Positions 10,570-59,810 of a stretch of 64,000 bases of DNA are shown piece by piece. The notes beneath the pieces are model-generated. The model saw only the letters and a program-made list of their open reading frames with translations. It had not been told where the DNA came from and made no database searches. How positions within the stretch are numbered: the stretch's first letter is position 1; the number at the start of each line of letters is the position of its first letter. Source of the stretch: Stomorhina lunata (lineage: Eukaryota > Arthropoda > Insecta > Diptera > Rhiniidae); assembly GCA_933228675.1 (NCBI GenBank), contig OW121740.1, positions 154,429,273 through 154,493,272 on the forward strand, written 5' to 3'. The position numbers were made by a program, and so were the translations under genes.

Positions 10570-12140
10570 TAAAACTTGTTCACACCAAGACCCAATATGA
10601 TCACAATATGAAAATCTTTTCTTGTTCACACAAACAACAATTTTTTCAACTTGTTCACACCATGAACAACTTTTCTTTAGAAAACTTGTCCATATAAAAT
10701 GAACAACTTTTCTAAAGAAAACTTGTTCATATACAAAAGAAAACTTGTTCATATACAATGAACAACTTTTCTATAGAAAACTTGTTCATATAAAATGAAC
10801 AACTTTTCTATAGAAAACTTGTTCATATAAAATGAACAACTTTTCTATAGAAAACTTGTTCATATAAAATGAACAACTTTTCTATAGAAAACTTGTTCAT
10901 ATAAAATGAACAACTTTTCTATAGAAAACTTGTTCATATAAAATGAACAACTTTTCTATAGAAAACTTGTTCATATAAAATGAACAACTTTTCTATAGAA
11001 AACTTGTTCATATAAAATGAACAACTTTTCTATAGAAAACTTGTTCATATAAAATGAACAACTTTTCTATAGAAAACTTGTTCATATAAAATGAACAACT
11101 TTTCTATAGAAAACTTGTTCATATAAAATGAACAACTTTTCTATAGAAAACTTGTTCATATAAAATGAACAACTTTTCTATAGAAAACTTGTTCATATAA
11201 AATGAACAACTTTTCTATAGAAAACTTGTTCATATAAAATGAACAACTTTTCTATAGAAAACTTGTTCATATAAAATGAACAACTTTTCTATAGAAAACT
11301 TGTTCATATAAAATTAACAACTTTTCTATAGAAAACTTGTTCATATAAAATTAACAACTTTTCTATAGAAAACTTGTTCATATAAAATGAACAACTTTTC
11401 TATAGAAAACTTGTTCATATAAAATGAACAACTTTTCTATAGAAAACTTGTTCATATAAAATGAACAACTTTTCTATAGAAAACTTGTTCATATAAAATG
11501 AACAACTTTTCTATAGAAAACTTGTTCATATAAAATGAACAACTTTTCTATAGAAAACTTGTTCATATAAAATGAACAACTTTTCTATAGAAAACTTGTT
11601 CATATAAAATGAACAACTTTTCTATAGAAAACTTGTTCATATAAAATGAACAACTTTTCTATAGAAAACTTGTTCATATAAAATGAACAACTTTTCTATA
11701 GAAAACTTGTTCATATAAAATGAACAACTTTTCTATAGAAAACTTGTTCATATAAAATGAACAACTTTTCTATAGAAAACTTGTTCATATAAAATGAACA
11801 ACTTTTCTATAGAAAACTTGTTCATATAAAATGAACAACTTTTCTATAGAAAACTTGTTCATATAAAATGAACAACTTTTCTATAGAAAACTTGTTCATA
11901 TAAAATGAACAACTTTTCTATAGAAAACTTGTTCACATAAAATGAACAACCTTTCTATAGAAACTTGTTCATATACAATGAAACAATTTTCTATAGAAAA
12001 CTTGTTTACACTATAAACAACTTTTGTAAAGAAAACTAGTTTACACTATAAACAACTTTTCTTGTTTACACTGTAAACAATTTTTCTATAGTGTAAGAAC
12101 AATTTTTCTATAGAAAACTTGTTTACACTATAAAACAAAA
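10570..12140. repeat. 37-bp dyad satellite array (array 2)
   Basis: About 36 near-identical copies of a 37-bp unit (10690-11960), with decayed copies on both edges. Each unit holds two dyads: TTTTCTATAGAAAA, and GTTCAT-ATAAA-ATGAAC. Two adjacent units near 11320-11350 carry the same T-for-G change (AATTAACAAC), consistent with local duplication. The right edge drifts to TTGTTTACACTATAAAC. Confidence 0.96.
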
Positions 12141-13370: not shown

Positions 13371-14570
13371 AACTTTTTTATAAAAATGTTGTTTAGAACA
13401 ACTTTTAGAACATTTCTATAGAAAAGTTGTTCTGAACAACATTTCTATAGAAAAGTTGTTCTGAACAACATTTCTATAGAAAAGTTGTTCTGAACAACAT
13501 TTCTATAGAAAAGTTGTTTTGAACAACATTTCTATAGAAAAGTTGTTCTGAACAACATTTCTATAGAAAAGTTGTTCTAAACAACATTTCTATAGAAAAG
13601 TTGTTTTGAACAACATTTCTATAGAAAAGTTGTTCTGAACAACATTTCTATAGAAAAGTTGTTCTGAACAACATTTCTATAGAAAAGTTGTTCTGAACAA
13701 CATTTCTATAGAAAAGTTGTTCTGAACAACATTTCTATAGAAAAAAGTTGTTCTGAACAACATTTCTAGAGAAAAGTTGTTCTGAAAAAAATTTCTAGAG
13801 AAAAGTTGTTCTGAACAACATTTCTACAGAAAAGTTAATCTGAACAACATTTCTGTAGAAAAGTTGTTCTGAACAACATTTCTATAGAAAAGTTGTTCTG
13901 AACAACATTTCTATAGAAAAGCTGTTCTGAACAACATTTCTATAGAAAAGTTGTTCTGAACAACATTTCTATAGAAAAGTTGTTCTGAACAACATTTCTA
14001 TAGAAAAGTTGTTCTGAACAACATTCCTATAAAAGAGTTGTTTTGAACAATATTTCCATAGAAAAGTTGTTCTGAACAACATTTCTATAGAAAAGTTATT
14101 CTGGACAACATTTCTATAGAAAAGTTGTTCTAAACAACATTTTTATAGAAAAGTTGTTCTGAACAACATTTCTATAAAAAAGTTGTTTTGAACAACATTT
14201 CTACAGAAATATTATTCAGAACAACTTTCCTACAGAAATGTTGTTCATAACAACTCTTTTATAGAAATATTGTTCAGAAGAACTTTCTAAAGGAATGTTG
14301 TTCAGAACAACTTTTCTATTGAAATGTTGTTCACACCAACATTTCTATAGAAATGTTGTTCACACCAAATTTTCTATAGAAATGTTGTTCACAACAACTT
14401 TTCTATAGAAATTTTGTTCGCAAGAACTTTTCTATAGAAATTTTGTTCGCAAGAACTTTTCTATAGAAATGTTGTACGCAACAACCTTTCTAAGAAATGT
14501 TGCTCAGAACAACTTTTCTAATAAATGTTGTTCAGAACAACTTTTCTATATAAATGTTCAATAGAAATGT
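13371..14570. repeat. 29-bp dyad satellite array (array 3)
   Basis: About 40 copies of a 29-bp unit that is almost entirely one dyad: AGAACAAC...GTTGTTCT arms around TTTCTATAGAAA. Copies at 13400-13740 and 13860-14030 are near identical. The right side (14200-14570) becomes divergent, with CACACCAAC and CGCAAGAAC variants. The core dodecamer is shared with arrays 2, 4, 6 and 7. Confidence 0.95.
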
Positions 14571-15388: not shown

Positions 15389-18300
15389 GTAAGAAATTTT
15401 ATAAAAATACTATTAAAATGAAATATAAAATTATATAAAAAATTTGTACGCGTAATTTTTTTGTGATGCCTAGGCTTATATGTATATACATACGTAACAG
15501 TTGTATTGAAATTTCAATTCAAACATAACAAATATATACTGACCAACTTTTGTGTTTATTTGTAGTCATAAATAGACTTAAATAAATGTATTTTTACCAT
15601 ATGAAAACATAGATTGAAATATAGTTGGAAAAAATCATGGAATAAACAAACAATAATAGCAACTGCAAAAACAAAACAAAAACAAAAAAACGGTTCAATT
15701 ATAATTGAGCTTTAAAAATGACCCCAAAGGCATACGAAAGCTGTTTTGAATCCATTTAACTCTCCTTTTCCACATAACTTACTTGGAGTTGTGCACTAGA
15801 CCAGAGGCTGGTTGGAATTTTTGACGACAATTGAGATTTAGTCATAGTAGTAGTAGTGTGAACAAGTTTCAAAGTTGGTCATAGTGTGAACAACATTTCT
15901 ATAGAAAAGTTGGTCATAGTAGGAACAACATTTCTTTCAAAAAGTTGGTCATAGTCTGAACAACAGTTGGAAGAAAAGTTGGTCATAGTAACACTTCTAT
16001 AAAAAAGTTGATCCTAGTGCGAACAACATTTGTACAAAAAAGTGGGTCAGAGTATGAACAACATTTCCAAGAAAATATGGTAATAGTGTAAAAAACATTT
16101 CTATGGAAAAGTTGGTCATAGTGTGAACAACATTTTTATAGAAAAATTGGTCATAGTGTGAACAACATTTCAATAAAGAAATTGGTCATAATGTGAACAA
16201 CATTTCAATAGAAATGTGGGTCATGGTATGAACAACATTTCCATAGAAAATATGGTAATAGTGTAAACAACATTTCTATGGAAAAGTTGGTCATAGTGTG
16301 AACAACATTTTTATAGAAAAGTTGGTCATAGTGTGAACAACATTTCAATAAAGAAATTGGTCATAGTGTGAACAACATTTCAATAGAAAAATGTGTCATG
16401 GTATGAACAACATTTCTATAGAAAATATGGTAATAGTGTAAACAATATTTCTATGGAAAAGTTGGTCATAGTGTGAACAACATTTTTATAGAAAAGTTGG
16501 TCATAGTGTGAACAACATTTCAATAAAGAAATTGGTCATAATGTGAACAATATTTCAATAGAAATGTGGGTCATGGTATGAACAACATTTCCATAGAAAA
16601 TATGGTAATATGGTAATAGTGTAAACAACATTTCTATGGGAAAGTTTGTCATAGTGTGAACAACATTTCAATAGAAAAGTAGATTATAGTATGAACAACA
16701 TTTCCAAGAAAAGATGGTAATAGTGTAAACAACATTTCTATGAAAAAGTTGGTCATAGCGTGAACAACATTTCAATAAAGAAATTGGTCAGAGTGTGAAC
16801 AACATTTCAATAGAAAAGTGGGTCATAGTATGAATAACATTTCCATATAAAAGATGGTAATAGTGCAAACAACATTTCTATAGAAAAGATGGTCATAGTG
16901 TGAACAACATTTTTATAGATAAGTTGGTCATAGTGTGAACAACATTTCAATAAAGAAATTGGTCAGTATGAACAACATTTCAATAGAAAAATGGGTCATG
17001 GTATGAACAACATTTCTATAGAAAATATGGTAATAGTGTAAACAACATTTCTATGAAAAAGTTGGTCATAGTGTGAACATTTTTATAGAAAAGTTGGTCA
17101 TAGTGTGAACAACATTTCAATAGAAAAATGGGTCATGGTATGAACAACATTTCTATAGAAAATATGGTAATAGTGTAAACAACATTTCTATGGAAAAGTT
17201 TGTCATAGTGTGAACAACATTTTTATAGAAAAGTAAGTCATAGTGTGAACAAAATTTCAATAAAGAAATTGGTCATAGTGTGAACAACATTTCAATAGAA
17301 AAGTAGGTTATAGTATGAACAACATTTCCAAGAAAAGATGGTAATAGTGTAAACAACATTTCTATTGAAAAGTGGGTCATAGTATGAACAACATTTCCAT
17401 AGAAAAGATGGTAATAGTGCAAACAACATTTCTATAGAAAAGATGGTCATAGTGTGAACAACATTTTTATAGAAAAGTTGGTCATAGTGTGAACAACATT
17501 TCAATAGAAAAGTGGGTCATAGTATGAACAATATTTCCAAAGAAAAGATGGTAATAATAATAGTGACCATAAAAAAGTTTATCGGAGTGTGAACATTTCT
17601 TTAGAAAAGTTGGTTACAGTGTGAAAACCATTTCTATGGTCATATTATAAACAACATTTCTATCAAAAAGTGGTTCATAGTATGAGCAACATTTCTATCA
17701 AAAAGTTGGTTATAATGTGAACAACATTTCTATAAACAAATTTTCTCTAAAAAAGTTGTTCATAGTGTAAACATGTTTTCTTCAGAAAAGTTGTTTATAA
17801 TGTAAACAAGATTTTCCTAGAAATGTTGTTCATGGTGTAAACAAGTTTTCCTTTAAAAAGTTGTTTACAGTCTAAACAAAATCTTCTATAGAAAAATGTG
17901 TCAAAAATTTTTCTATAGAAAAGTTCTTCAGTGTGAACATGTTTTCTCCAGAAAAGTTGTTCATAGTAAACAAGTTCTTTTCTTAGAAATATTGGTTTTT
18001 AGTGTGAACACATTTTTTCTTCAGAAAATTTCCCTATTGGTAGGACAGTAGTTTTCAACATGCAATTAAAGTCTATTGCATTTGTTAGTGTTTATGTCAA
18101 CAACATTTAAAAAACGCTGTTGTCTTCGGGCTACAAATTTGGCGCACAGTTTTTTTTCCGTTTTAATCTGTAGCTGGTGTATTTGAAGCCAACAACTTTT
18201 TTTCTCTCGCTTGCAAAATCAATTCTTTTTAATTTTGTAGTTTTTCCAGTAAATAAATGCATTTTTCAGATGTTGTTGCTACTACGTTTACACTGGTCTA

Positions 18301-30686: not shown

Positions 30687-31450
30687 TTAATGTTTAAATA
30701 TGATTTCGGGCATGTGGCCGCCGCGGCTGGCTCGAATAAAGCCAATTCTACAGGTCCAATTTTCAACTACTTTTTCGAGCATATTGGGCCGTATGTTGGC
30801 AATAACGCCACGAATGTTGGCTTCCAAGTCCCCTAACGTTTCTGGTTTGTTGGCGTAGACGAGCGACGTCACATCTTGGTGGCCAATTGACAGGTCCATT
30901 CCGCGAAATTATGCGCTCATCGAATGTTTCCTTCAATAAATCAATTGTGACGTGCGCTGTGTGGCATGTAGTGCCGTCTTGTTGGAACCACAACTCATCC
31001 ACATTCATGCCATCCAATTGGGGAACAAAATAGTCGGTTATCAAGGCTCTATACCGGTCTCCATTTATGGTAACTGACTCTCCAGCATTATTTCGGAAGA
31101 AGTATGGCCCAATGGCTCCACCAGCCCATAGAGCACACCAAACAGTCAGTTTTTGTGGATGTAATGGCGTCTCAAGGGTCTCATGTGGATTCTCTTCACT
31201 CCAAATGCGGCAATTTTGCTTGTTGACGTAGCCATTCAACCAAAAATGAGCCTCATCACTGAACAAAATTTTGCGATGAAAATCAGCATCGAGATCAATC
31301 TCATTTTCGGCCCATACACCAAAATCACGACGCATTGCATGGTCTCGCGGCTTTAATTCTTGCACAAGCTGGATCTTGTAAGGTCGCAAGCCAAGATCTT
31401 TGCGCAAAATCTTCCATAAAGATGATGGACAAAGCTCCAATTGCTGTGCA
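30687..31450 (-). pseudogene. rosa-type mariner transposase, catalytic part
   Basis: Minus-strand reading gives HRAQQLELCPSSLWKILRKD, then KILFSDEAHFWLNGYVNKQN (first Asp) and LWFQQDGTTCHTA (second Asp). It then runs through ISRNGPVNWPPRCDV and, after a frame change, SLVYANKPETLGDLEANIRG to MPEIIFKH. Relatives have SCDLTPLDYFLWGYVK between the last two blocks. That stretch, including the third catalytic Asp, is deleted here near 30880. The product would be catalytically dead even without the other damage. Confidence 0.92.
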
Positions 31451-31455
31451 CGGTG

Positions 31456-32815
31456 CACAGTGGTTTACGGACGCTTTTTTTTGGAAATAATTCTGTAACT
31501 TTTGAACGACTGGAGATATTTGAATGAAATTTGACATGGTGGTAGTCAAGGAGTATTTGAGTTGGTTTTTAAAAGCACTGGTCCATGAGGGGTCGGGAGA
31601 GTGATTGATGGACCTTCAAAGTTGGTCACCTCGGGTGTTCGATTTTTTTAAAAATTCGCCAAAAATCCATTTATGTATGGATTGAAAAGAAATTTTAAAC
31701 TTAAGTTGTCCTTGAGAAGATCTACAAAAAATATGCTTAAATGTGTAGGTTATCTCCTTTGGATTTCGAGATATTTGGGTAAAAAGGAATTTTTAGGTTG
31801 ATTTTTTACCTCTTTTTTTAAGCTTTTTTTGATCTGGTGGACGCATCTGAGGACCAAAAATTTTTTAAGAATATTCTTTAAATTTGTAATAAAATTCTGA
31901 ATAATTTTTGTGCAAGTTAGTTATAGAAATCTTCTTTTGTTTAAAAGTTAAAAATATTCAAAGTTGAAACTTACAAAAAATTTCGCTTTTTTTTTAGTTT
32001 TTCCCCAAAAGATAGCTATATTTTTTCACTAATAAAAAAATATTTTCTTAAGAAACATAAAAAGATTTTTAAAGTTTTTAAAAGAAAACATAATGAGAAT
32101 GCGCATAAAACAAATTTCTTGCTAATTGGACTTTTGGTCCTCGCACATGTCCTCTCCAAAAAATGGCAATTTGTAAAAAAAAAAATTAGTTTAAACAAAA
32201 ATTTCTCAAAAGGCAAAGCACCGATTTGAAAAAAATTATAATGTTCATATTTTCCAATATATCTGTTATTGATTAGAAAAGTTTTTTCTGAAACGCGCTG
32301 CAAATAGAGACAGTGTTGCCATATTTGTAAAAAAACTCATTTTTTGAAACACCTTTTTCCCCAGTTGGGAATTGGGGAATTTTTAAGTTAAAATTGGGAA
32401 TTTTTTTTAGTCTATTGCTTTTACATCTTATTGGTCTACATTACTACAAAATTTCATTGTAATATCTTTATCCATGTCATTTCCACAGAATATCAAAGAT
32501 TAAAAATATTTTCCTTAAAAAAGCAGAAAAACAATTTTTTTTTGTTTTACGATACAAAGTGTAAAAAAAGTAACGCACTTAAAAAAAACTTTTACTTAGT
32601 GCTAATCTCCTAGTCTTTCCCGATCTAATGATACTAAACATGTATATAAAGCATTAATACCGAGTCTTAAAAAACTCTGAAAACTTTGGCCCCCGTAGCA
32701 TTTTTACACTGTTTATTTAAATATAAGTGATGAATTTGTGCATATAAAATTAATAATCATACTCAAATATTTCACTATAAGATGACAATGATCCTTCGAT
32801 AACAAACAAATATTT
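31456..32815. repeat. Transib left terminal inverted repeat
   Basis: About 1.36 kb, non-coding. It matches 35620-36984 in inverse with only scattered single-base differences, for example GTGGTAGTCAAGG against GTGATAGTCAAGG, and TGCGCATAAAAC against TGCGTATAAAAC. Identity ends near the ACAAACAAATATTTT block. The high identity of the two arms suggests recent insertion or ongoing conversion between them. Confidence 0.93.
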
Positions 32816-32976
32816 TTTTATTTTTTTAAAGAAAATATCATGAGGATTTATGAAATATCAAAATGTAAATAATTTGTACTTATATTAAAAGGTGAAATAC
32901 ATTTTATTGAAGTATTTGTAGTTAAAGTTTAAACTTACAGTTTTTATTACATATTTATATAAAAGTAGTTATTTAC

Positions 32977-35012
32977 TTAATTTTTATTTTCAGTAAAATA
33001 ATCAGTACAATCTATTATATCAAGAACCTCTTCCAGGTGTTCGTTTTCAGAAGTTTTTGTATAACTGCTCCACCATTTCTTTCTTATCGTTGATAGAGCA
33101 GGATCAGAAGACAACAAGAGATAATTTATTAGATCCTGATTTTGCGATTTTCTTGAGCATTTTCTGGTATTAAATAGTTGGATATACTTGAAATCTGAAT
33201 TCCGCGCTTCCTGGGCCTCTTCTGTCAGTTCACCAAGTGGGAGAAGATTTGATTCAATTATTTCACGACCATGTTGAAGGACTTTATGAACTGTTGGTGT
33301 AATTTCTTTCCAGTGATACAAATGTCGTATACGAGTTAACGCGTTGAGGGCATAGCAATGAAATTTTTCAGCATTTATTTGATATTTGCTATTTATTGCC
33401 GATAATATTACGTAACATTTACGAAGAACTTCCTCATCAATTCCAGTAATCTTTGAAGTTGTTTCATAATTTTCAAAGAATCGCCTGGCCGTATTACCAT
33501 CGTTTGTACTGCCATATCCTACAAGTGGTTTGTCTATGTTTAGACCCGTCATAGTTTTGAATTCTTCCTGAATCCTTTTTTTTCACTAGATCTCATTTCA
33601 ATCAGTTCCTTATTATTTCTCACGGATTTTAGCTGATTATCAGGTATATTCCTATATTTCAGATCATATGCTATATGTAGCATAAATTCTAAAAATCGGA
33701 TACGTGCATGTAGGGGCGATATACCAAATTCCAGAACCTCTTGATTAATTGCAGTACTAGCTGATGCATCTTCTGAAGTTTGTAGAAATTCCGATTTCTT
33801 CTTTCCGCATAATGAGCATTTCCAAGTTGAATGGGTTTCCGTTATAGCGTTGCTTACTTTTCCATCTATCATTGTCAATTGAAGCTCAAAATTTACATTA
33901 ATCAAATATCCATGTATGTCTATGCAGACTGGACTCAAATTGTCTATTGAATATTAGATATCATCAACCCAATTTTTTGTGCTTGCTGCATTTTCTTTTA
34001 AATATTCGAATCTGATCGGTCTGCAAAATGCCTTTGATCCTGGAGATGTGTTAACCCACACATATTCAGTACGCTCTTTTGATGTGGATGGTTCAGAACG
34101 ATTCTTTCTTAATCTTAGTGGTACTAGGGATGCCATAAAAACGCTTCTGTAGTCATTTGTGTTCTGATGAGATGTTGATTGTTTGTATTCCGGTAATCCA
34201 GATAAACCGTCACATCCCCATTTACATATTAAAGTTAAGTCCTTGTTGTCAAGTTTCTTGGCTTCTTCTTCAGACAATGTAGTAGATATCAGCCTTGATG
34301 CCGTATTTTCCAATAATTTTGATAAATCCACAGATGCACTTTCGTCTCCTATCACGTTTGTTGGTATTAAGTTTTTTTTGGTTTTTAATAACGCATTATA
34401 TCCTGGTAAAATTGAGTGTCCTTTGTCTCGTAATGCCTTACAGAGTTTAATATATTTATTTTTACTCAATTTCAACTCGAGCATAAGAGCAAGTGCTTCT
34501 TCCTCCGAAAATTCTGATTGAGAAGAAGGAGTTGGTATACTCTTAATAATTCGCTTAAGACGTTTAGGAGAAGCCTCTGGGAGAATATCTGCTATTTGTT
34601 TAGCTTCAGCTGGTTGATTATTTCGTTTGAGCACTTCCTTAAAGGAATCTTTGATTTCAGTATCCGAATGAGTAGAAAGAACTTCGGATAATCGCATCTT
34701 TTTAGATCTTTCTCCGAGATCATCATAGTTTTTTAGAGGGGCTCCAGCACCAGAAGTTTTAAGCTCAATTGAGTCCTTCAGCCAGTCTTTAAATTTAGAT
34801 TCAAATCTTTTTAAACAGTAATTAACCGACTTAATTTTAAGTTCAAATAACTTTACAAATTTTACGACTTTGTCTTCCTCACTATTGAGAATCATGGAGT
34901 TAGTTTGACTTTTAGCATATCGCATGATTATTTTAATTTTTTCTGCTCTCGAACTGCTTGGTTGTTCAAAAAGAATATCGCACAACACTTTAAATTCCAA
35001 TGTTATAGCCAT
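32977..35012 (-). pseudogene. Transib transposase (RAG1-related), two lesions
   Basis: Starts MAITLEFKVLCDILFEQP at 35012. Residues 1-352 end at a TAA (33954-33956). The same frame continues directly (YSIDNLSPVCIDIHGYL), so this is one nonsense change. A shift in an A8 run near 33580 then moves the frame to IQEEFKTMTGLNIDKP, which runs to 32977. Family residues are present in order: the first Asp in KWGCDGLSG (residue 268), the second in LTMIDGK, a CxxC in WKCSLCG, HxxxxH in VHKVLQH, and the Glu in LTEEAQEARN. These correspond to the RAG1 DDE triad and its C2/H2 zinc site. Total length of roughly 670 residues is normal for Transib. The enzyme would cut and paste elements with CACAGTG ends. 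This copy is probably inactive. Confidence 0.93.
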
Positions 35013-35619
35013 GATGTTTTAACTGTTAATAGCAGTTACATTTAAAACTTTCTTTTTTATATTAAAAAAAAACATTTTTTATATATACCTGTATCCAAAG
35101 AATAATAAAGAAATCAATGAATTAATGTATTTTTTACCTCTAAAAATAGGTGCATATATAACTCAACAAATATGTGCGTCTCGTAAAACCTACCTGTATG
35201 GAGGTGAGTAACCATATCCTTTCTGACCATTATGAAAAACCCAAGTTGTAACAATTTTTACCTATTGCATTAACTTTCACATTAAAAAACATTTTATAAC
35301 CTTAACATAATTTTGCAATTTTTTCAAATACACCAATTTTAAATACCGGAAAAATGCCTTTAAATCTTATTTTAAATAAATTGTCACACTGTTACTATAA
35401 AAGTACTCTTCTAATTAAACTTTTGCTACAAATTATGGATATATTACCTTTACACTGTTATCAAAATCGGTGCCTTACTCGTACTTACTTATTTAGAATC
35501 TTTTACTAAAATTTTATTTTTTAGCTTGGAACAAAAGGCAAAATCGAATAAAATTTTTTTAAGTCATTCTTATAATGTTTTCTTTAAAAAAATAAAAAAC
35601 TATTTATATCTTTTTGAAG

Positions 35620-36984
35620 AAAATATTTGTTTATTAGCGAAGGATCATTGTCATCTTAAAAATAGTGAAATATTTGAGTATGATAATTAACTTTATATGC
35701 ACAAATTCATCACTTATATTTAAATAAACAGTGTAAAAATGCTACGGGGGCCAAAGTTTTCAGAGTTTTTTAAGACTCGGTATTAATGCTTTATATACAT
35801 GTTTAGTATCATTAGATCGGGAAAGACTAGGAGATTAGCACTAAGTAAAAGTTTTTTTTAAGTGCGTTACTTTTTTTACACTTTGTATCGTAAAACAAAA
35901 AAAAATTGTTTTTCTGCTTTTTTAAGGAAAATATTTTTAATCTTTGATATTCTGTGGAAATGACATGGATAAAGATATTACAATGAAATTTTGTAGTAAT
36001 GTAGACCAATAAGATGTAAAAGCAATAGACTAAAAAAAATTCCCAATTTTAACTTAAAAATTCCCCAATTCCCAACTGGGGAAAAAGGTGTTTCAAAAAA
36101 TGAGTTTTTTTACAAATATGGCAACACTGTCTCTATTTGCAGCGCGTTTCAGAAAAAACTTTTCTAATCAATAACAGATATATTGGAAAATATGAACATT
36201 ATAATTTTTTTCAAATCGGTGCTTTGCCTTTTGAGAAATTTTTGTTTAAACTAATTTTTTTTTTTACAAATTGCCATTTTTTGGAGAGGACATGTGCGAG
36301 GACCAAAAGTCCAATTAGCAAGAAATTTGTTTTATACGCATTCTCATTATGTTTTCTTTTAAAAACTTTAAAAATCTTTTTATGTTTCTTAAGAAAATAT
36401 TTTTTTATTAGTGAAAAAATATAGCTATCTTTTGGGGAAAAACTAAAAAAAAAGCGAAATTTTTTGTAAGTTTCAACTTTGAATATTTTTAACTTTTAAA
36501 CAAAAGAAGATTTCTATAACTAACTTGCACAAAAATTATTCAGAATTTTATTACAAATTTAAAGAATATTCTTAAAAAATTTTTGGTCCTCAGATGCGTC
36601 CACCAGATCAAAAAAAGCTTAAAAAAAGAGGTAAAAAATCAACCTAAAAATTCCTTTTTACCCAAATATCTCGAAATCCAAAGGAGATAACCTACACATT
36701 TAAGCGTATTTTTTGTAGATCTTCTCAAGGACAACTTAAGTTTAAAATTTCTTTTCAATCCATACATAAATGGATTTTTGGCGAATTTTTAAAAAAGTCG
36801 AACACCCGAGGTGACCAACTTTGAAGGTCCATCAATCACTCTCCCGACCCCTCATGGACCAGTGCTTTTAAAAACCAACTCGAATACTCCTTGACTATCA
36901 CCATGTCAAATTTCATTCAAATATCTCCAGTCGTTCAAAAGTTAAAGAATTATTTCCAAAAAAAAGCGTCCGTAAACCACTGTG
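35620..36984. repeat. Transib right terminal inverted repeat
   Basis: Inverse partner of 31456-32815, ending GCGTCCGTAAACCACTGTG. Open frames inside it (for example 36137-36424) are mirrored in the left arm and have biased Phe/Lys/Leu composition, so I do not treat them as genes. Confidence 0.93.
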
Positions 36985-36989
36985 CGGTG

Positions 36990-37233
36990 GCGAATCGATT
37001 CATTCGGGTCCTCTTCAACACTTTGCTCTACAGCGGCAATTGTTTCTTCGGTGCGCACTGTTCGACGTCGCTGCGGATGTGTATTATCACAGAGTAAACG
37101 TAGTGCGAAAACGATCCATGGTTAACCGAATTAATTGCTCTGATGGACGATTATGTCGACCATAAAATGAACCATTATTTTCGAAATAAATTTGCACGAT
37201 TTGCAAGCGTTGTTCTTTTGTCAACCTGTTCAT
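36990..37233 (-). pseudogene. rosa-type mariner transposase, N-terminal part
   Basis: It starts MNRLTKEQRLQIVQIYFENN at 37233, the first helix-turn-helix of mariner transposases, and continues to MDRFRTTFTL. There a one-base shift breaks the frame near 37040. The adjacent frame continues through THPQRRRTVRTEETIAAVEQ to NESIRH at the Transib insertion point. It is the upstream part of the gene continued at 30687-31450. Confidence 0.9.
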
Positions 37234-38020: not shown

Positions 38021-38092
38021 GGCTCAATGGTCTAGGGGTATGATTCTCGCTTTGGGTGCGAGAGGTCCCGGGTTCAAATCCCGGTTGAGCCC
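38021..38092 (+). tRNA. tRNA-Pro (anticodon TGG)
   Basis: A 72-nt cloverleaf. The acceptor stem is GGCTCAA/TTGAGCC, the anticodon stem CTCGC/GCGAG closes loop TTTGGGT with anticodon TGG (reads CCA), and the T arm is CCCGG-TTCAAAT-CCCGG. The A-box region TGGTCTAGGGG and B box GGTTCAAATCC are intact. There is no intron and no encoded CCA, and a T-run terminator follows. An identical gene sits at 44294. Confidence 0.98.
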
Positions 38093-44293: not shown

Positions 44294-44365
44294 GGCTCAA
44301 TGGTCTAGGGGTATGATTCTCGCTTTGGGTGCGAGAGGTCCCGGGTTCAAATCCCGGTTGAGCCC
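44294..44365 (+). tRNA. tRNA-Pro (anticodon TGG), second copy
   Basis: All 72 bases equal the gene at 38021-38092, with the same stems, TGG anticodon and A/B boxes. Flanks differ apart from a short AGAGGCTCAA/TGAGGCTCAA match at the 5' edge and a CCCA 3' edge, so identity is confined to the gene. That points to selection or conversion rather than a recent large duplication. Confidence 0.98.
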
Positions 44366-44378: not shown

Positions 44379-44519
44379 GTTAAATTTTGTTTGTTTAGAT
44401 AAAAAATTGTTTTTTTAATAAAAAAAAAAATTTAATGCAAAAATGTGTTTTTTAAAAAAAAATAAAATTAATGAAAAAAAAAATTTGTAAGAAAAATTGC
44501 TTTTTTAATAAAAAAAAAA

Positions 44520-46931
44520 ACAAGTAAGAGTGGTATATTCGGCTTTGCCGAATCTTGGATACCCTTCACCAATGGTGTTGCAAAAGTACTTAATGTAATT
44601 CCTAGCAAAATTTGGTTATACTAGTATTATATGCAGAGTCATTAAAATTAAGAGTCGGAAAAAGAAAAGCTTTTCGGTGGCGTCATCATCTAGAATAGTT
44701 ATGCACCCAAAGGTTAGGTTGGGCAGGTGGCTGATGTCTACTGAAGCTTCACTTGTTAGAACCCAAGTGGTCCCTTTGTGAAAGATAATGATTATTAGAC
44801 TACAAGTAAAGAATGCATATTTAAGCCAGCCAGTAGCTTCGAAATAAAATATACACATATTTTACGAACACTTAATAAAGTTCGATAGACCAGATAAACC
44901 ATGCAGAAAAGATGCTTCAAAATGTAGATGCCCTTACATTTGCAATAGCACATCGATTTGATGAAGTTTAAGTATTCTGGCATGCAACCCAAAAACACAG
45001 TGCCCAGTGAGGGTTGTGCACTTTAATTCGTACGAATTATCCAACTAGTAAACTATTAAAATTATAGGGTATACACTCTTAGTTTTAGATACATACGTGA
45101 AATATATAGCTTTTGAATGGATGGATATCAGCTTTGTCGGAAAAGTTATTAAAGATTTACTTATTAATCTGAAGTTAGTTAATTAAGTAAAATGAACACT
45201 TCATCAATAATATTTGGGATGTATTGTTCTTTCGATATGTCCGATGGATGTTTGGAAAGTTTTGCTCTAGTTCCTTGTGCAATTTTAATGTGTTTTAATT
45301 TATCAGCATTAAATCGATTCCCGGTCGGGGTTATATGGGAGATTTCACTAAATGTGAATAGAGCTCGCCCATTTTTAATATCGAACTTTTCAAGAGATCA
45401 GAAATACTTTTGTCAAATGTTGTCCCTCTAGAAAGTTTATTTTAGGCGCTATCGCCCTGAATATCAATATTGTACAACGTCTTTATACTAAATGTCATCA
45501 TCTTATCTTAGCCGAAGTTATACGGGATCAATTGTCAAATGTGAACGGATTTCTCCCAATTGCAATTAAAAAATTTAAATTTTCGTTGATATGTGAGATA
45601 CTTACATACATATGTAGGTTTTGAACGGATATCATGTAATTAGCTGCATTTTTGTACTTCCTAGGAAGATTACCTATAATTTGATATATAATACATTCTC
45701 AAATGTTATCATAATGTTCAAAAGTCAGACACAAAATTAAGGTTAATGCAGAGTGTCTGTCTGCTAAAATCAGATTTGTGGAGCTCCTGAATTTTATACA
45801 AAATTTTAGGATATTGTCCCACCCTGAATTTTATCATTGTCGATCAAAACACCATCGCTTTCAACAAAACAGGAGCTCCAAAAACTTGACTACAACAGAA
45901 AAAATTACAGACAGGTAGACGGACGGACAAAAAAAAAAACAGACGGACAAACAAACAGACGGACGGACGGACAGACAAATAGACGGACGGACGGACGGAC
46001 GGACGGACAGACAGACAAACAGACGGACGGAGGTCGCGAAATCGATTCTTCTGCCGATTCTGAGTTGATCGGTACAATTTGAATGGTATTCGTAATCAGA
46101 TTTGTGGAGTATAGATTTTAGAAAATCCTCACACAAAGAACGATGTCAAATTTCATCACAATCGGTCCATAAACACCTGAGATATCGCTGAAACAATACT
46201 TACAAAATGTAAACAAAATTTCTTAGACACGTACTTTGGTCAATTTGCTGTACATCAAATGTAGTGTTATTGCGATATCTCAATTGTTTATGGACCGCTT
46301 TTGATAAAATTTAATAACGTGCTTGGCGGGGGAATTTCCTAAAATCTGATATAAAATTTATGTAATTCCGTGCTAAAGGAGGATGGTTTTTCCTATTTCT
46401 GCATTTCATTTTTTCAACAAACATTCTCTAATGCGAACTTTGGGCAATTTGCGATACATCAAATTCAGTGTTTTGGCGATATCTCAGTTGTTTATGGACC
46501 GATTTTGATAAGAGTGCTTTGGGAAACTATTTCCTGATATATAACATATTGTCACATGTACACCAGGAGTATCTTTTTTCTCTTGTTATTTAAAAGTGTG
46601 TTTCAATCAAAAATTTTAAAATTTTAGTCTAATTTTTTGTATTTTTTCGATATTTTCGGTGTTTATAAACCGATTTTAATGAAATTTAATAGCGTTCATT
46701 GCGGGAGAATTTCCTAAAATCTAATATATAATTTATGTAAGTCCATCCTCCAGGGGCTTCAGAAACTTGATTTCAACAGACAGACAGACAGGCGGACGTC
46801 GCTTAATCGGTTCTCCTCCCGATTCTGAGTCGATCGGTATAATTTTTATGGGGTCTACGATCACTAATAAAAAAATTACAAACGGAATCACAAACTTATA
46901 ATACCCTTTCACCTATTGGTGAAGGGTATAA
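44520..46931 (-). mobile_element. Long GTCY-family element (family B), copy 1
   Basis: The left edge is the reverse of the 3' end (ACAAGTAAGAGTGGTATATT then the hairpin ATTCGGC-TTT-GCCGAAT). The right edge is the reverse of the 5' end (ATACCCTTTCACCTATTGG, then TGAAGGGTATA). A GACG/GACA microsatellite lies at 45905-46032 and a second at about 46780. About 2.4 kb, closely matching 59811-62410 in inverse. Short open frames (for example 44795-44998) have counterparts in the other copy but no known domain. Confidence 0.85.
45905..46032. repeat. (GACG/GACA)n proto-microsatellite
   Basis: Interrupted GACG and GACA tetramers, the GTCY class in reverse, inside the family B element. Copy number differs from the inverse copy near 60763-60835, as expected for an unstable tract. 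Confidence 0.9.
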
Positions 46932-47930
46932 AAATAGTAACAATTGCAAATTTTACATGAATTGAAATAAGCAAGAAATCCTATTAATAAAATTTTGTTA
47001 AAAACAAAAATGTTTACACATTTAATTGTTTAAACAATGAAGGTAGCAATTGTTTAGTTTTTTTTTATTATTGTATAATTTACCACAAATCTTTTGATTA
47101 TTATTAAATCATAAACATAAAAGCAGTAACAATTAAATGAACAAAACAACAATAACAAATGGACTAACCTCTGTCCATTTTGTCGAAGAAACGCCCCAAC
47201 TCCCATCATGTTGGCGGTTTTGGAAATGATATGGTGGGTTTTGAAAACGTAACATTATTTATAAAACTCTAAATTGTTGTTAACATTATAATGTTGATGT
47301 TTAAATGATTAATTATAGCAACAGTTTTTTTTTGCTGCTTTTATAATAAATAGTCTAAAAATGTTCATTGTACTTATTTTAAAGTTTTCTTCTGGTTTTT
47401 ATATAACAATTGAGTTATTAAAGAAAACTTATAATTTAATATAACAAAATTGTCTCTTATTTAACACGAAAGTTATAAAAAAATCTCTATAAAGTAACTT
47501 TTAATATAAAGAGTTATCATAAAAAAATAAATATACCAAGATCAATCTCCTTAACTGGTCATTCGGTTTAAAAGAGATATTAACTCTTCTTTCGATTTAA
47601 TTTTTAATAAGTTGTTCTAAATGGGGCCCAATCAAAAATTGTCTTCGAATTTATTAGCATTTAATTTTATAAAGAATTGTGTTCACTGACGAATGTCGTT
47701 CCTGTCAAAATTAGTTAAAATGGCGAATGATACCACGAGCGCAGTATTTTTTGCCATTCCAAAACAAAGTAAATACGAATTATAAGGTTTTAAAAATAGA
47801 AAAAACATCTAAAGCGGAGATTATCTCCTAAACAAAATTACACAAACAAATTATTTTTTAGTTACGCTTTTCCTATAAAAAAAAAAAATTCACTTTAAAT
47901 TAATTTAATAAAAAATTTTACTAAAAAATT
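46932..47930. other. Intergenic stretch, no gene recognised
   Basis: AT-rich. The GC-richer CGCCCCAACTCCCATCATGT patch near 47192 has no open frame or splice context that I could use. No gene is supported. Confidence 0.45.
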
Positions 47931-51475: not shown

Positions 51476-52255
51476 TTAGGACTTATTATGTGCCAAAAAT
51501 TAATGCAAAAACAATTTTGCTATTAAGCGATTATTGGGAAATTTTGTGGTGAATCGTTTTAATTTACGAAAATTGGTTAACAATATTCAAAAATTTGTAT
51601 TTAAGCTGATATTAAAATCTTATTCAAAAGACAAAATAATCTTAAAATCGAGATATAACACCTCAAAATCATATAAATAATATTGGAAATATAACTATTT
51701 TCATTTCACATAAACTGTAAAATAAAATAAATTTTTAAATTTTAAAAGAAGTTCTATTATGAAATGATTTTCAAATTTTGATTACACTATAGAAAAAATA
51801 CGGCCCATCCCAGGACAATGTAACACTTTCAGGACCTGTCTAAAGCAGACTTAGATATTAATAAAAAGCAATATTTTTTTTAAACTCTTTTACTTTGTGG
51901 AAAATGATTTGATTTTTAGTGTTTTCCATTTTTATTTCCTTATCATTTTTTTTTCAATTATAAAAATTTCCAATAAATTTGTTTCGTTTTATTTTCAAGG
52001 AATAAAGAAAATTTCTGGCGTTGACAACTATTAAAATAGCGATAAAAATAAATTATAAATAAGTCGAATAATAAAAAAGTTTGTTCTTGCCCTTTAGCGT
52101 AAGTAATGCAAATGTTTTGAATATAGGAAAAATAAATAAACACCGAACATATGAAACTCTACTCCAATGCTGAGGTCAGATGTAGGACCAATTTTTTATA
52201 AAGAATAATTTTCTATAAAAAAAACTTTCCTATTGAATTTTCATATTAAAACATT
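51476..52255. other. Intergenic stretch, no gene recognised
   Basis: AT-rich sequence leading into array 6. No gene or element end is supported. Confidence 0.45.
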
Positions 52256-55200
52256 GAAAATAAAAATTTTCTTTGAAAAGTTTTTCTATAGAAAATTTTT
52301 CCTTTTAAAAAAATTTTCTATAGAACATTTTTCATTTTAAAAAAATTTTCTATAGAAAATTTTTCATTTTAAAAAGTTTTCTAAAGAAAATTTTTCATTT
52401 AAAAAAATTTTCTATAGAAAATTTATCATTTTAAAAAGTTTTCTACAGAATATTTTTCATTTTAAAAAGTTTTCTACAGAAAATTTTTAATTTTTAAAAA
52501 TTTTCTATAGAAAATTTTTAATTTTTAAAAATTTTCTATAGAAAATTTTTCATTTTAAAAAATTTTCTATAGAAAATTTTTCATATTAAAAAATTTTCTA
52601 TAGAAAATTTTTCATATTAAAAAATTTTCTATAGAAAATTTTTCATATTAAAAAATTTTCTATAGAAAATTTTTCATATTAAAAAATTTTCTATAGAAAA
52701 TTTTTCATATTAAAAAATTTTCTATAGAAAATTTTTCATATTAAAAAATTTTCTATAGAAAATTTTTCATATTAAAAAATTTTCTATAGAAAATTTTTCA
52801 TATTAAAAAATTTTCTATAGAAAATTTTTCATATTAAAAAATTTTCTATAGAAAATTTTTCATATTAAAAAATTTTCTATAGAAAATTTTTCATATTAAA
52901 AAATTTTCTATAGAAAATTTTTCATATTAAAAAATTTTCTATAGAAAATTTTTCATATTAAAAAATTTTCTATAGAAAATTTTTCATATTAAAAAATTTT
53001 CTATAGAAAATTTTTCATATTAAAAAATTTTCTATAGAAAATTTTTCATATTAAAAAATTTTCTATAGAAAATTTTTCATATTAAAAAATTTTCTATAGA
53101 AAATTTTTCATATTAAAAAATTTTCTATAGAAAATTTTTCATATTAAAAAATTTTCTATAGAAAATTTTTCATATTAAAAAATTTTCTATAGAAAATTTT
53201 TTATATTAAAAAATTTTCTATAGAAAATTTTTTAAAATGAAAAATTTTTCATATTAAAAAATTTTCTATAGAAAATTTTTCATATTAAAAAATTTTCTAT
53301 AGAAAATTTTTCATATTAAAAAATTTTCTATAGAAAATTTTTCATATTAAAAAATTTTCTATAGAAAATTTTTTATATTAAAAAATTTTCTATAGAAAAT
53401 TTTTCATTTTAAAAAATTTTCTATAGAAAATTTTTCATTTTAAAAAATTTTCTATAGAAAATTTTTCATTTTAAAAAATTTTCTATAGAAAATTTTTCAT
53501 TTTAAAAAATTTTCTATAGAAAATTTTTCATTTTAAAAAATTTTCTATAGAAAATTTTTCATTTTAAAAAATTTTCTATAGAAAATTTTTCATTTTAAAA
53601 AATTTTCTATAGAAAATTTTTCATTTTAAAAAATTTTCTATAGAAAATTTTTCATTTTAAAAAATTTTCTATAGAAAATTTTTCATATTAAAAAATTTTC
53701 TATAGAAAATTTTTCATATTAAAAAATTTTCTATAGAAAATTTTTCATATTAAAAAATTTTCTATAGAAAATTTTTCATATTAAAAAATTTTCTATAGAA
53801 AATTTTTCATATTAAAAAATTTTCTATAGAAAATTTTTCATATTAAAAAATTTTCTATAGAAAATTTTTCATATTAAAAAATTTTCTATAGAAAATTTTT
53901 CATATTAAAAAATTTTCTATAGAAAATTTTTCATATTAAAAAATTTTCTATAGAAAATTTTTCATATTAAAAAATTTTCTATAGAAAATTTTTCATATTA
54001 AAAAATTTTCTATAGAAAATTTTTCATATTAAAAAATTTTCTATAGAAAATTTTTCATATTAAAAAATTTTCTATAGAAAATTTTTTATATTAAAAAATT
54101 TTCTATAGAAAATTTTTCATTTTAAAAAATTTTCTATAGAAAATTTTTCATTTTAAAAAATTTTCTATAGAAAATTTTTCATTTTAAAAAATTTTCTATA
54201 GAAAATTTTTCATTTTAAAAAATTTTCTATAGAAAATTTTTCATTTTAAAAAATTTTCTATAGAAAATTTTTCATTTTAAAAAATTTTCTATAGAAAATT
54301 TTTCATTTTAAAAAATTTTCTATAGAAAATTTTTCATTTTAAAAAATTTTCTATAGAAAATTTTTCATTTTAAAAAATTTTCTATAGAAAATTTTTCATT
54401 TTAAAAAATTTTCTATAGAAAATTTTTCATTTTAAAAAATTTTCTATAGAAAATTTTTCATTTTAAAAAATTTTCTATAGAAAATTTTTCATTTTAAAAT
54501 TCATTTTAAAAAATTTTCTATAGAAAATTTTTCATTTTAAAAAATTTTCTATAGAAAATTTTTCATTTTAAAAAATTTTCTATAGAAAATTTTTCATTTT
54601 AAAAAATTTTCTATAGAAAATTTTTCATTTTAAAAAATTTTCTATAGAAAATTTTTCATTTTAAAAAATTTTCTATAGAAAATTTTTCATTTTAAAAAAT
54701 TTTCTATAGAAAACTTTTCATTTTAAAAAATTTTCTATAGAAAATTTTTCATTTTAAAAAATTTTCTATAGAAAATTTTTCATTTTAAAAAATTTTCTAT
54801 AGAAAATTTTTCATTTTAAAAAATTTTCGATAGAAAATTTTTCATTTTAAAAAATTTTCTATAGAAAATTTTTCATTTTAAAAAATTTTCTATAGAAAAT
54901 TTTTCATTTTAAAAAATTTTCTATAGAAAATTTTTCATTTTAAAAAATTTTCTATAGAAAATTTTTCATTTTAAAAAATTTTCTATAGAAAATTTTTCAT
55001 TTTAAAAAATTTTCTATAGAAAATTTTTCATTTTAAAAAATTTTCTATAGAAAATTTTTCATTTTAAAAAATTTTCTATTGAAAATTTTTCATTTTAAAA
55101 AATTTTCTATAGAAAATTTTTCATTTTAAAAAATTTTCTATAGAAAATTTTTCATTTTAAAAAATTTTCTATAGAAAATTTTTCATTTTAAAAAATTTTC

Positions 55201-55620
55201 TATAGAAAATTTTTCATTTTAAAAAATTTTCTATAGAAAATTTTTTATTTTAAAAAATTTTCTATAGAAAATTTTTCATTTTAAAAAATTTTCTATAGAA
55301 AATTTTTCATTTTAAAAAATTTTCTATAGAAAATTTTTCATTTTAAAAAATTTTCTATAGAAAATTTTTCATTTTAAAAAATTTTCTACAGAAAATTTTT
55401 CATTTTAAAAAGTTTTCTATAGAAAATTTTTCATTTTAAAAAGTTTTCTATAGAAATTTTTTTATTTAAAAAAAAAAATTGTCTTTAGAAAATTTTTCAT
55501 TTTGAAAAATTTTGTATAGAAAATTTTTTATTTAAAAAAAAATTTTATAGAAATTTTTTTTTTTTTTCATTTAAAATAAATTCTATAGAAAATTTTCGTT
55601 TTAAAAAATTTTCTATAGAA
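52255..55620. repeat. 31-bp CTATAG satellite, forward orientation (array 6)
   Basis: About 108 units of 31 bp built from TTTTCTATAGAAAA, then TTTTTCATATT or TTTTTCATTTT, then A-runs. The ATATT and ATTTT types occur in blocks: ATATT at about 52550-53390, ATTTT at 53400-53670, ATATT at 53680-54100, and ATTTT from 54110. A rare TTTTTATATT variant sits at the end of the ATATT blocks near 53370 and 54085. Edges decay on both sides. Confidence 0.97.
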
Positions 55621-55624
55621 AATT

Positions 55625-56280
55625 TCACAACATATTAAAAATTTATTCCTTAAACGTTCGCTTTTGCTTCAGAGGTGTAGGCGATCAAAACCCCAGCTAA
55701 AATCAGACGGACAACAATTTAAATGCAATTTATTCACAATAAGATTAAAAAGATAAAAACTCCAATAAAAAAGTGAAGTGGCGAATTATATAATATTGAT
55801 TTATTTCATAGGCGCTAAATGTTTAGATTGTTTCATAAATTGTGTTGCTGTTGCTTGTTAAAAATGAAGCATATGCAACATGCTGCATGTTGCATGTATG
55901 CGTTATTAATCCAAATTAGATGAAAAGGTTAAATATGTGCTGATCATGACTTGCATCAACTGATATCTGCTACTAATTCCAGTTGATTTACAACAATTGT
56001 AGTTGCAATTATTTGCTTCTCTTCTATTCCTGGATCTGTTGCAAACAAATCATCAATTTGATTTGAGGAGTTTGCATGTGACTGACCTCTCTCCTCCTTC
56101 TTTTGATGAGGGGTAATCACTTGTGTTCATACGAACATGATTATTTTCATGAGCGAAATTAATATAAATGTTCAAATTTTTTATTTGTTTGCAAAATTTG
56201 AAAATGTTTGCAAATGAATAGATGTACAATTAGGGTTATTCCCTTTTCGTTTATTTTAGTAAGAAAATTTTTTTAAAACA
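55625..56280. other. Unique spacer between the inverted satellite arrays
   Basis: About 0.65 kb of non-repetitive sequence. It holds a perfect 23-bp palindrome, ATGCAACATGC-T-GCATGTTGCAT (55873-55895). No open reading frame or RNA gene is recognised. Confidence 0.7.
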
Positions 56281-59200
56281 TTTTTTTTATTCATTATGAA
56301 AAATTTTCTATACAAAATTTATTCAATATGAAAAATCTTCTATACAAAATTTATTCAATATGAAAAATTTTCTATAGAAAATCTATTCAATATGAAAACA
56401 TTTTTTACAGAAATTTATTCAATATGAAAAATTTTCTATAGAAAATTTATTCAATATGAAAAATTTTCAATAGAAAATTTATTCAATAGAAAAATTTTCT
56501 ATAGAAAATTTATTCAATATAAAAAATTTTCTATAGAAAATTTATTCAATATGAAACATTTTATTTTAATATGAAAAATTTTCTATAGAAAATTTTTTAA
56601 TATGAAAAATTTTCTATAGAAAATTTTTTAATATGAAAAATTTTCTATAGAAAATTTTTTAATATGAAAAATTTTCTATAGAAAATTTTTTAATATGAAA
56701 AATTTTCTATAGAAAATTTTTTAATAAGAAAAATTTTCTATAGAAAATTTTTTAATATGAAAAATTTTCTATAGAAAATTTTTTAATATGAAAAATTTTC
56801 TTTAGAAAATTTTTTAATATGAAAAATTTTCTTTAGAAAATTTTTTGATACGAAAAATTTTCTTTAGAAAATTTTGTGATATGAAAAATTTTCTTTAGAA
56901 AATTTTGTGATATGAAAAATTTTCTTTAGAAAATTTTTTGATATGAAAAATTTTCTTTAGAAAATTTTTTGATATGAAAAATTTTCTTTAGAAAATTTTT
57001 TGATATGAAAAATTTTCTTTAGAAAATTTTTTGATATCAAAAACTTTCTTTAGAAAATTTTTTGATATCAAAAATTTTCTTTAGAAATTTTTTTAATATG
57101 AAAAATATTCTCTAGAAAATTTTTTAACATGAAAAAATTTTTAATATGAAAAACTTTCTCTAGAAAATTTTTTAATATGAAAAATTTTCTCTAGAAAATT
57201 TTTAATATGAAAAGTTTTCTCTAGGAAATTTTTTAATATGAAAAATTTTCTCTAGGAAATTTATTAATATGAAAAATTTTCTATAGAAAATCTTTTAATG
57301 TGAAAAATTTTCTATAGAAAATCTTTTAATGAAAAAAATTTTCTATAGAAAATCTTTTAATGTGAAAAATTTTCTATAGAAAATTTTTTAATGTGAAAAA
57401 TTTTCTATAGAAAATTTTTTAATGTGAAAAATTTTCTATAGAAAATTTTTTAAAATGAAACATTTTATATAGAAAATTTTTTAACGTGAAAAATTTTCTA
57501 TAAAAAATTTTTAAACGTGAAAAATTTTCTATAAAAAATTTTTAAACGTGAAAAATTTTCTATAAAAAATTTTTTAACGTGAAAAATTTTCTATAGAAAA
57601 TTTTTTAACGTGAAAAATTTTCTATAGAAAATTTTTTAACGTGAAAAATTTTCTATAGAAAATTTTTTAACGTGAAAAATTTTCTATAGAAAATTTTTTA
57701 ACGTGAAAAATTTTCTATAGAAAATTTTTTAAAGTGAAAAATTTTCTATAGAAAATTTTTTAATATGAAAAATTTTCTATAGAAAATTTTTTAATATGAA
57801 AAATTTTCTATAGAAAATTTTTTAATATGAAAAATTTTCTATAGAAAATTTTTTAATATGAAAAATTTTCTATAGAAAATTTTTTAATATGAAAAATTTT
57901 CTATAGAAAATTTTTTAATATGAAAAATTTTCTATAGAAAATTTTTTAATATGAAAAATTTTCTATAGAAAATTTTTTAATATGAAAAATTTTCTATAGA
58001 AAATTTTTTAATATGAAAAATTTTCTATAGAAAATTTTTTAATATGAAAAATTTTCTATAGAAAATTTTTTAATATGAAAAATTTTCTACAGAAAATTTT
58101 TTAATATGAAAAATTTTCTATAGAAAATTTTTTAATATGAAAAATTTTCTATAGAAAATTTTTTAATATGAAAAATTTTCTATAGAAAATTTTTTAATAT
58201 GAAAAATTTTCTATAGAAAATTTTTTAATATGAAAAATTTTCTATAGAAAATTTTTTAATATGAAAAATTTTCTATAGAAAATTTTTTAATATGAAAAAT
58301 TTTCTATAGAAAATTTTTTAATATGAAAAATTTTCTATAGAAAATTTTTTAATATGAAAAATTTTCTATAGAAAATTTTTTAATATGAAAAATTTTCTTT
58401 AGAAAATTTTTTAATATGAAAAATTTTCTATAGAAAATTTTTTAATATGAAAAATTTTCTATAGAAAATTTTTTAATATGAAAAATTTTCTATAGAAAAT
58501 TTTTTAATATGAAAAATTTTCTATAGAAAATTTTTTAATATGAAAAATTTTCTATAGAAAATTTTTTAATATGAAAAATTTTCTATAGAAAATTTTTTAA
58601 TATGAAAAATTTTCTATAGAAAATTTTTTAATATGAAAAATTTTCTATAGAAAATTTTTTAATATGAAAAATTTTCTATAGAAAATTTTTTAATATGAAA
58701 AATTTTCTATAGAAAATTTTTTAATATGAAAAATTTTCTATAGAAAATTTTTTAATATGAAAAATTTTCTATAGAAAATTTTTTAATATGAAAAATTTTC
58801 TATAGAAAATTTTTTAATATGAAAAATTTTCTATAGAAAATTTTTTAATATGAAAAATTTTCTATAGAAAATTTTTTAATATGAAAAATTTTCTATAGAA
58901 AATTTTTTAATATGAAAAATTTTCTATAGAAAATTTTTTAATATGAAAAATTTTCTATAGAAAATTTTTTAATATGAAAAATTTTCTATAGAAAATTTTT
59001 TAATATGAAAAATTTTCTATAGAAAATTTTTTAATATGAAAAGTTTTCTATAGAAAATTTTTTAATATGAAAAATTTTCTATAGAAAATTTTTTAATATG
59101 AAAAATTTTCTATAGAAAATTTTTTAATATGAAAAATTTTCTATAGAAAATTTTTTAATATGAAAAATTTTCTATAAAAAATTTTTTAATATGAAAAGTT

Positions 59201-59380
59201 TTCTTTAGAAAATTTTTTAATATGAAAAATTTTCTTAAGAAAATTTATTAATATGAAAAATTTTCTTAAGAAAATTTATTGAATATGAAAAATGTTCTAT
59301 AGAAAATTTATTCAATATGAAAAATTTTCTATAGAAAATTTTTCAATATAAAATATTTTCTATAGAAAATTTATTCAATA
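56280..59380. repeat. 31-bp CTATAG satellite, reverse orientation (array 7)
   Basis: About 100 units of 31 bp, TTTTCTATAGAAAATTTTTT plus AATATGAAAAA. The reverse complement of this unit is exactly the ATATT unit of array 6. Positions 57740-59180 are nearly uniform. Left-side blocks carry linked variants (TTTAGAAAATTTTTTGATATG at about 56800-57060, AACGTG at 57480-57710), again showing block-wise spread. Confidence 0.97.
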
Positions 59381-59389
59381 TCAAAAATC

Positions 59390-59808
59390 GATTAATTTGA
59401 TTTCCCTTAATGTTTTGTAACTTAACAATCCATGTCCACACTGAAGCTAATCTCCATAACAAAGAAACTCCCAACTCCTTTTCAAGTCTGTCTTAGCTTA
59501 AATCATCAAGCTTTAGTCAGTCTTCGTCATGCATTTGGTGGGGGTAATTTATGACTGAATTAAAAACTTATGATTTAATGCAACGACATGATGTCTGATG
59601 TTTGTCTGTCATTTGTTATTTTCCAAAGATTTCTCGTCAAAGGAAAAGTCAATGACAAGTTAATAGAAAAGAAACTTGTTTCAATTTGTTTTCATGTTTG
59701 AAATAAATGAAAATTTCAATGTCATTAAAATTTAAATATTAAAAATTTAGGAAAGATGAAATTTTTGTACAAGTAAATTTTTTCATTTTATGGTAAAAAT
59801 ATTTCTTT
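59390..59808. other. Intergenic stretch, no gene recognised
   Basis: Moderately AT-rich, non-repetitive. No gene is supported. Confidence 0.45.
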
Positions 59809-59810
59809 TT

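What the first reader, a model, noticed from the sequence alone, without database searches (positions are those of the whole stretch)
31456..36984. Transib transposon whose ends are the exact V(D)J heptamer CACAGTG
Seen: ends CACAGTG-GTTTACGGACGC, 5-bp duplication CGGTG, and a transposase with D, D, E, CxxC and HxxxxH residues in the Transib/RAG1 order. Known: Transib is the transposon superfamily from which RAG1 and the RSS are thought to derive, but most family ends differ from CACAGTG at one or more positions. A dipteran copy with the full heptamer and a near-complete transposase is a useful comparison point. I saw no clear nonamer at 12- or 23-base spacing.
Basis: partly seen in the sequence, partly recalled or inferred. 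Interest (0 to 1): 0.78.

Follow-up and report, generated by a model that had tools for sequence, protein, structure and literature searches.

The report
Transib transposon with kilobase-long inverted ends
This is a jumping gene, probably from a fly, of the family related to the enzyme that rearranges our antibody genes; it ends in the same seven letters as antibody-gene signals, which is already known in kind for this family, and its most unusual trait is its very long mirror-image ends.

Summary
Window 31456-36984 (5,529 bp) is one insertion with perfect CACAGTGGTTTACGGACGC ends and CGGTG duplications. Joining the flanks gives one open frame of a DD41D mariner-type transposase across the junction. 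The enzyme is Transib: the read-through matches Helicoverpa zea Transib at 4.3e-89, amphioxus RAG1L only at 1.4e-4. The DDE, CxxC and HxxxxH residues are conserved. One in-frame stop and one frame change break the gene.

The reading is partly supported. Transib ends identical to RSS elements are already reported (PMC8355894). No nonamer stands above chance. No other copy could be examined, so the family-wide end is untested. Verdict: a well-formed new member of a known kind.

The parts
31451..31455 (.). left target-site duplication CGGTG
31456..32819 (+). left terminal inverted repeat, about 1.36 kb, outermost bases CACAGTGGTTTACGGACGC
   Evidence: 31456-32816 against 36984-35620, 1,351 of 1,361 aligned bases identical, one 4-base gap; BLAST carries the pairing to 32819 / 35617 at 98.9% of 1,368 columns
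31456..31462 (+). left heptamer CACAGTG
32977..35012 (-). Transib transposase gene, no intron needed, broken by one stop and one frame change; 678 residues when read through with X at both places
   Evidence: HzTransib matches
34209..34211 (-). codon of the first catalytic Asp (KWGCDG)
   Evidence: D in 67 of 67 relatives aligned; coordinates by arithmetic
33954..33956 (-). in-frame stop codon inside the transposase gene
33864..33866 (-). codon of the second catalytic Asp (MIDGK)
   Evidence: D in 66 of 67; coordinates by arithmetic
33549..33582 (-). overlap of the two reading frames; the frame change lies here, in or beside an 8-base homopolymer
33208..33210 (-). codon of the catalytic Glu (EAQEARN)
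   Evidence: E in 63 of 67, gap in the other 4; coordinates by arithmetic
35528..35641 (.). diverged internal repeat across the inner edge of the right arm, 77.6% identical over 116 columns to inverted-repeat positions 570-685
   Evidence: 86 bits against at most 46.4 in 100 shuffles
35617..36984 (-). right terminal inverted repeat
36978..36984 (-). right heptamer CACAGTG
36985..36989 (.). right target-site duplication CGGTG
30763..31455 (-). interrupted DD41D mariner-type transposase, larger (C-terminal) part
36990..37233 (-). N-terminal part of the same interrupted mariner-type gene, itself frame-disrupted

Best explanation
A Transib-superfamily cut-and-paste DNA transposon of 5,529 bp inserted into a DD41D mariner-type transposon copy. 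Inferred from HzTransib and RAG: a dimer of the DDE transposase binds both ends, nicks 5' of the CAC of each heptamer, makes hairpins on the flanks, excises the element and joins it to staggered target bonds, giving a 5-bp duplication (the product is shown here: CGGTG on both sides). The transposase gene is read on the minus strand between two inverted repeats of about 1.36 kb. This copy's gene carries a stop and a frame change, so as read it is non-autonomous; its ends are intact and could in principle be moved by a related working enzyme (inference). The long inverted repeats most likely arose by secondary growth, as described for Galileo, and are not what defines the RAG-like ends (inference).
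Against: Only one copy was seen, with no second copy in the window, so family boundaries and the consensus end rest on it. Pfam's RAG1 model (PF12940) gives only 13.9 bits on one piece, below its 25-bit cut-off, and no RAG1 or Transib model hits the read-through at E<=0.1. The target A-CGGTG-G matches only 4 of 6 fixed bases of the D. melanogaster hopper/transib2 motif CCANTGG (motif from PMC3276498; comparison by eye). In Galileo of D. [quoted passage not shown]
Confidence: 0.95

Rival explanations
1. The element is a RAG-like (RAG1L/RAG2L) transposon rather than a Transib, and so lies closer to vertebrate RAG.
Confidence: 0.02
2. The 1.36-kb inverted repeat is not a family trait but a one-off: a second end was copied into this copy (for example by repair or gene conversion), or it is an assembly fold-back.
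For: The arms are 99.3% identical at aligned positions; D. melanogaster transib1-4 have 40-45 bp TIRs (PMC10299278, Table 1 passage); only one copy was available.
Against: The flanks on both sides come from one interrupted gene and rejoin in frame with one copy of the 5-bp duplication, and the arms differ at 10 positions and one 4-base gap, so a pure assembly fold-back does not fit. Hztransib is described as having 'long TIRs' (PMC1852546). A copy-specific gain before insertion is not excluded.
Confidence: 0.3
3. The lesions in the transposase gene are sequencing or assembly errors and the copy encodes a working enzyme.
For: Only two lesions are apparent over 678 residues; the frame change falls in or beside an 8-base homopolymer; every motif residue checked is intact.
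Against: The in-frame stop is not explained by homopolymer error. The two arms have drifted at 10 positions, which would fit an older, inactive copy.
Confidence: 0.15

Closest known systems
Hztransib (Helicoverpa zea), structures 6pqn, 6pqr, 6pqx, 6pqy
   Same: Transposase family and fold, 5-bp duplication, described as having long TIRs (PMC1852546, passages) and symmetric TIRs with an RSS-heptamer-like end (PMC8289069).
   Different: Hztransib is 3,518 bp with a deduced 489-aa protein; here 5,529 bp and 678 residues read through. The match to the solved chain starts at residue 162 of the read-through, leaving about 160 N-terminal residues outside it. The Hztransib TIR length is in a figure that is not held, so lengths could not be compared.
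transib1-4 and hopper of Drosophila melanogaster
   Same: Filed as Transib; 5-bp duplication for hopper (532 of 533 sites) and transib2 (7 of 7) (PMC3276498).
   Different: Elements of 1.4-2.9 kb with 33-45 bp TIRs (PMC10299278 Table 1 passage) against 5.5 kb and about 1.36 kb.
V(D)J recombination signal sequence / RAG1-RAG2
   Same: Heptamer CACAGTG exact (consensus as printed in PMC8289069); RAG1 core fold in the model of a relative.
   Different: No nonamer at 12 or 23 bases above chance, symmetric ends, no RAG2-like gene seen.
Galileo and Foldback elements (Galileo: P superfamily, Drosophila)
   Same: Anatomy only: Galileo TIRs reach about 1.26 kb, partly grown by internal tandem repeats (PMC3573991, passages; PMC3688188, passages).
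   Different: Galileo belongs to the P-element superfamily with 7-bp target duplications; this enzyme is Transib. The Galileo copies with the longest TIRs lack the transposase gene.
Unnamed relative P0002 (675 aa)
   Same: 61% identity over 100% of the query, no interruption in its 675 aa; sister of the window protein at SH-aLRT 99 in a quick tree.
   Different: Known only as a protein on a contig of at most 2,340 bases, so its ends cannot be compared.

Membership tests
Transib superfamily | Transposase homologous to Transib, with DDE, CxxC and HxxxxH in that layout | tested here: met
   fold of the nearest relative
Transib superfamily | 5-bp target-site duplication | tested here: met
   CGGTG both sides, empty site readable in frame
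Transib superfamily | TIRs beginning CAC with an RSS-heptamer-like end | tested here: met
   CACAGTG at both ends
Transib superfamily | Single transposase gene, no RAG2-like partner | tested here: met
   ORF lists and the little space left; the small ORFs were not searched one by one, so a decayed remnant is not excluded
Transib superfamily | Ends conserved across genomic copies | not testable with these tools
   own-genome search was asked 9 times and not answered; no second copy in the window
RAG-like (RAG1L-RAG2L) transposon | Convergent RAG1L and RAG2L genes | tested here: not met
   no second long ORF; Transib far closer than the RAG1-like protein
RSS-type end (12/23) | Nonamer ACAAAAACC after a 12- or 23-base spacer | tested here: not met
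   0 of 9 at 12, 4 of 9 at 23, best 5 of 9 within one base of either, a common score
Galileo / Foldback (P superfamily) | P-superfamily transposase | tested here: not met
Galileo / Foldback (P superfamily) | Kilobase, internally repeated TIRs | tested here: met
   1.36-kb arms; one diverged internal repeat above shuffles, lying across the inner edge of one arm

The most novel reading that the evidence does not exclude
A lineage of Transibs, perhaps of flies, has gone the Foldback way: kilobase-long, internally repeated terminal repeats with exact RSS heptamers are its fixed architecture and add binding sites or recombination substrate, as proposed for Galileo, so that RAG-family transposition would be tied to long-TIR assembly and to chromosome inversions.
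Probability: 0.12. Interest if true: 0.5.

Novelty: new member of a known kind. Interest (0 to 1): 0.27.

Why it matters
It gives one cleanly bounded Transib with a full RSS heptamer and no nonamer, consistent with the view that the heptamer is the old shared part of the signal while the nonamer is not general in Transib. The 1.36-kb inverted repeats are the part worth following: if they recur in other copies, a RAG-family transposon with Foldback-like ends could be used to ask what long repeats do for a RAG-type enzyme.

Tried and rejected
RAG-like transposon: rejected on sequence, fold ranking and lack of a second long ORF. Nonamer in either orientation: no signal; the best reverse-orientation match is 7 of 9 at spacer 10 and comes from a T run. 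Extra heptamers or end-like sites inside the arms: the only exact heptamers in the element are the two terminal ones, and 14-mers of the outer 60 bases recur no better than in shuffles (12 of 14 observed; 15 shuffles gave 11 to 13).

Other copies: none in the window. Nothing in viral contigs, neither by protein profile (31 pattern matches, 0 confirmed) nor by an exact 18-base end (0).

Print: searches for Transib with 'long terminal inverted repeats' (0 papers), with CACAGTG (3 papers), with other heptamer spellings (2 papers, neither holding the word Transib), and with long-TIR or foldback terms (24 papers, 15 listed; 13 papers, 10 listed) showed me no described kilobase-TIR Transib beyond Hztransib's 'long TIRs'. 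Most of those listed papers I did not open, and only openly licensed papers are held, so this is weak evidence of absence. The founding paper (Kapitonov and Jurka 2005) is not held, so its end alignments were not checked. Of the 13 papers opened I saw passages found by search terms, never a whole text.

Fold of the N-terminal ~160 residues: the comparison barely tests residues outside 165-642; no statement is made.

Full report
WHAT IS THERE. The element runs from 31456 to 36984, 5,529 bp. Its two ends read CACAGTGGTTTACGGACGC exactly, found twice in the window and in none of 100 shuffles with up to 3 mismatches. CGGTG flanks it on both sides. When the flanks are joined with a single copy of CGGTG, one reading frame runs through the junction, and the larger flank is a DD41D mariner-type transposase: 95% identity over 87% to an unnamed protein cluster (P0123), with named relatives called 'putative DD41D transposase'. 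So this is a precise transposon insertion into another transposon. The insertion boundary does not depend on the Transib interpretation.

THE INVERTED REPEATS. The inverted repeat is much longer: 31456-32816 pairs with 36984-35620, 1,351 of 1,361 aligned bases identical with one 4-base gap; BLAST carries it to 32819 and 35617, 98.9% of 1,368 columns. Because the flanks on the two sides belong to one gene and rejoin in frame, and the arms differ at 10 positions, an assembly fold-back is unlikely. A 116-column stretch (570-685 of the repeat) recurs at 77.6% identity at 1344-1457 of the right arm, across its inner edge; it scores 86 bits, against at most 46.4 in 100 dinucleotide shuffles. Repeat growth of this kind is described for Galileo, whose TIRs reach about 1.26 kb, in part through internal tandem repeats and recruitment of inner sequence (PMC3573991, passages). 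Applying that history here is inference, and the fit is not exact: the Galileo copies with the longest TIRs have lost the transposase gene, whereas this copy keeps it in broken form.

THE HEPTAMER. CACAGTG is identical to the consensus RSS heptamer as printed in PMC8289069. Is this unusual? [quoted passage not shown] melanogaster and Transib2, N1, N2 and N3 of Anopheles gambiae (PMC8355894); another paper says most Transib families have symmetric TIRs with a heptamer-like end and little or no nonamer (PMC8289069). The element fits that second description: over spacers 11-13 and 22-24 the best nonamer match is 5 of 9, a score reached at 32% of positions in the element and 40% in the window. Symmetric ends would also fit 'Subgroup II' of PMC9435367 rather than Subgroup I, whose ends are all asymmetric; this was not tested by a tree with those sequences. 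The claim that most ends differ from CACAGTG could not be tested. From memory, not from a call: the founding 2005 paper aligned Transib ends with the RSS; it is not held.

HOW IT WORKS. Shown: bounded insertion, 5-bp duplication, symmetric ends, a broken but recognisable Transib transposase gene. Inferred from HzTransib and RAG: nick 5' of CAC, flank hairpin, excision, staggered joining. Inferred: this copy no longer encodes its own enzyme but keeps ends that a related enzyme could use. Not known: whether the long arms matter to the reaction. D. melanogaster transib1-4 have 40-45 bp TIRs (PMC10299278 Table 1 passage), so long arms are not general in the superfamily; Hztransib is described as having long TIRs (PMC1852546), so they are not unheard of either.

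HOST. Not identified. A fly is plausible: a Stomoxys protein lies in the same clade (P0039, 51% over 62%, species name cut off in the listing), and the nearest named fly hit for the interrupted mariner among the 120 listed is Musca autumnalis (79% over 87%). Against reading much into this: a moth protein (Eumeta japonica, P0027, 48% over 40%) ranks higher by E-value than P0039, the mariner list is dominated by a spider, Trichonephila clavipes, and transposons move between species.

VERDICT. The exact heptamer is a modest point already known in kind. The 1.36-kb arms are the unusual trait and deserve a genome-wide look. New member of a known kind; interest 0.27.

Noticed in passing
38021-38092 and 44294-44365: Two tRNA-Pro (TGG) genes on the plus strand, identical in sequence, 6.3 kb apart.
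   Followed up: partly
44518-46934 and 59806-62411: A dispersed repeat in inverted orientation, 94% over 537 columns and 86% over 2,021 columns.
   Followed up: no
52238-59387, 10738-12062, 13409-14558, 15871-17989, 241-1834: Several AT-rich tandem arrays with 29-37 base units, the longest about 7 kb of a 31-base unit; some units contain TTTCTATAGAAA-like palindromes.
   Followed up: no
30763-31455 and 36990-37233: The interrupted DD41D mariner-type gene is itself frame-disrupted on its N-terminal side, and relatives cover only 87% or less of the larger piece in the hits listed, so it is a decayed copy.
   Followed up: partly
31449-31462: The left junction reads CACGGTG directly followed by CACAGTG, because the duplicated target CGGTG is preceded by CA; the target itself looks heptamer-like. 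Probably chance or target preference.
   Followed up: no
L013, L058, L066, L067, L073: Five contigs of one Verrucomicrobia MAG carry a shared GC-rich repeat that contains CACAGTGGTTTACGG but is otherwise unlike the element.
   Followed up: partly
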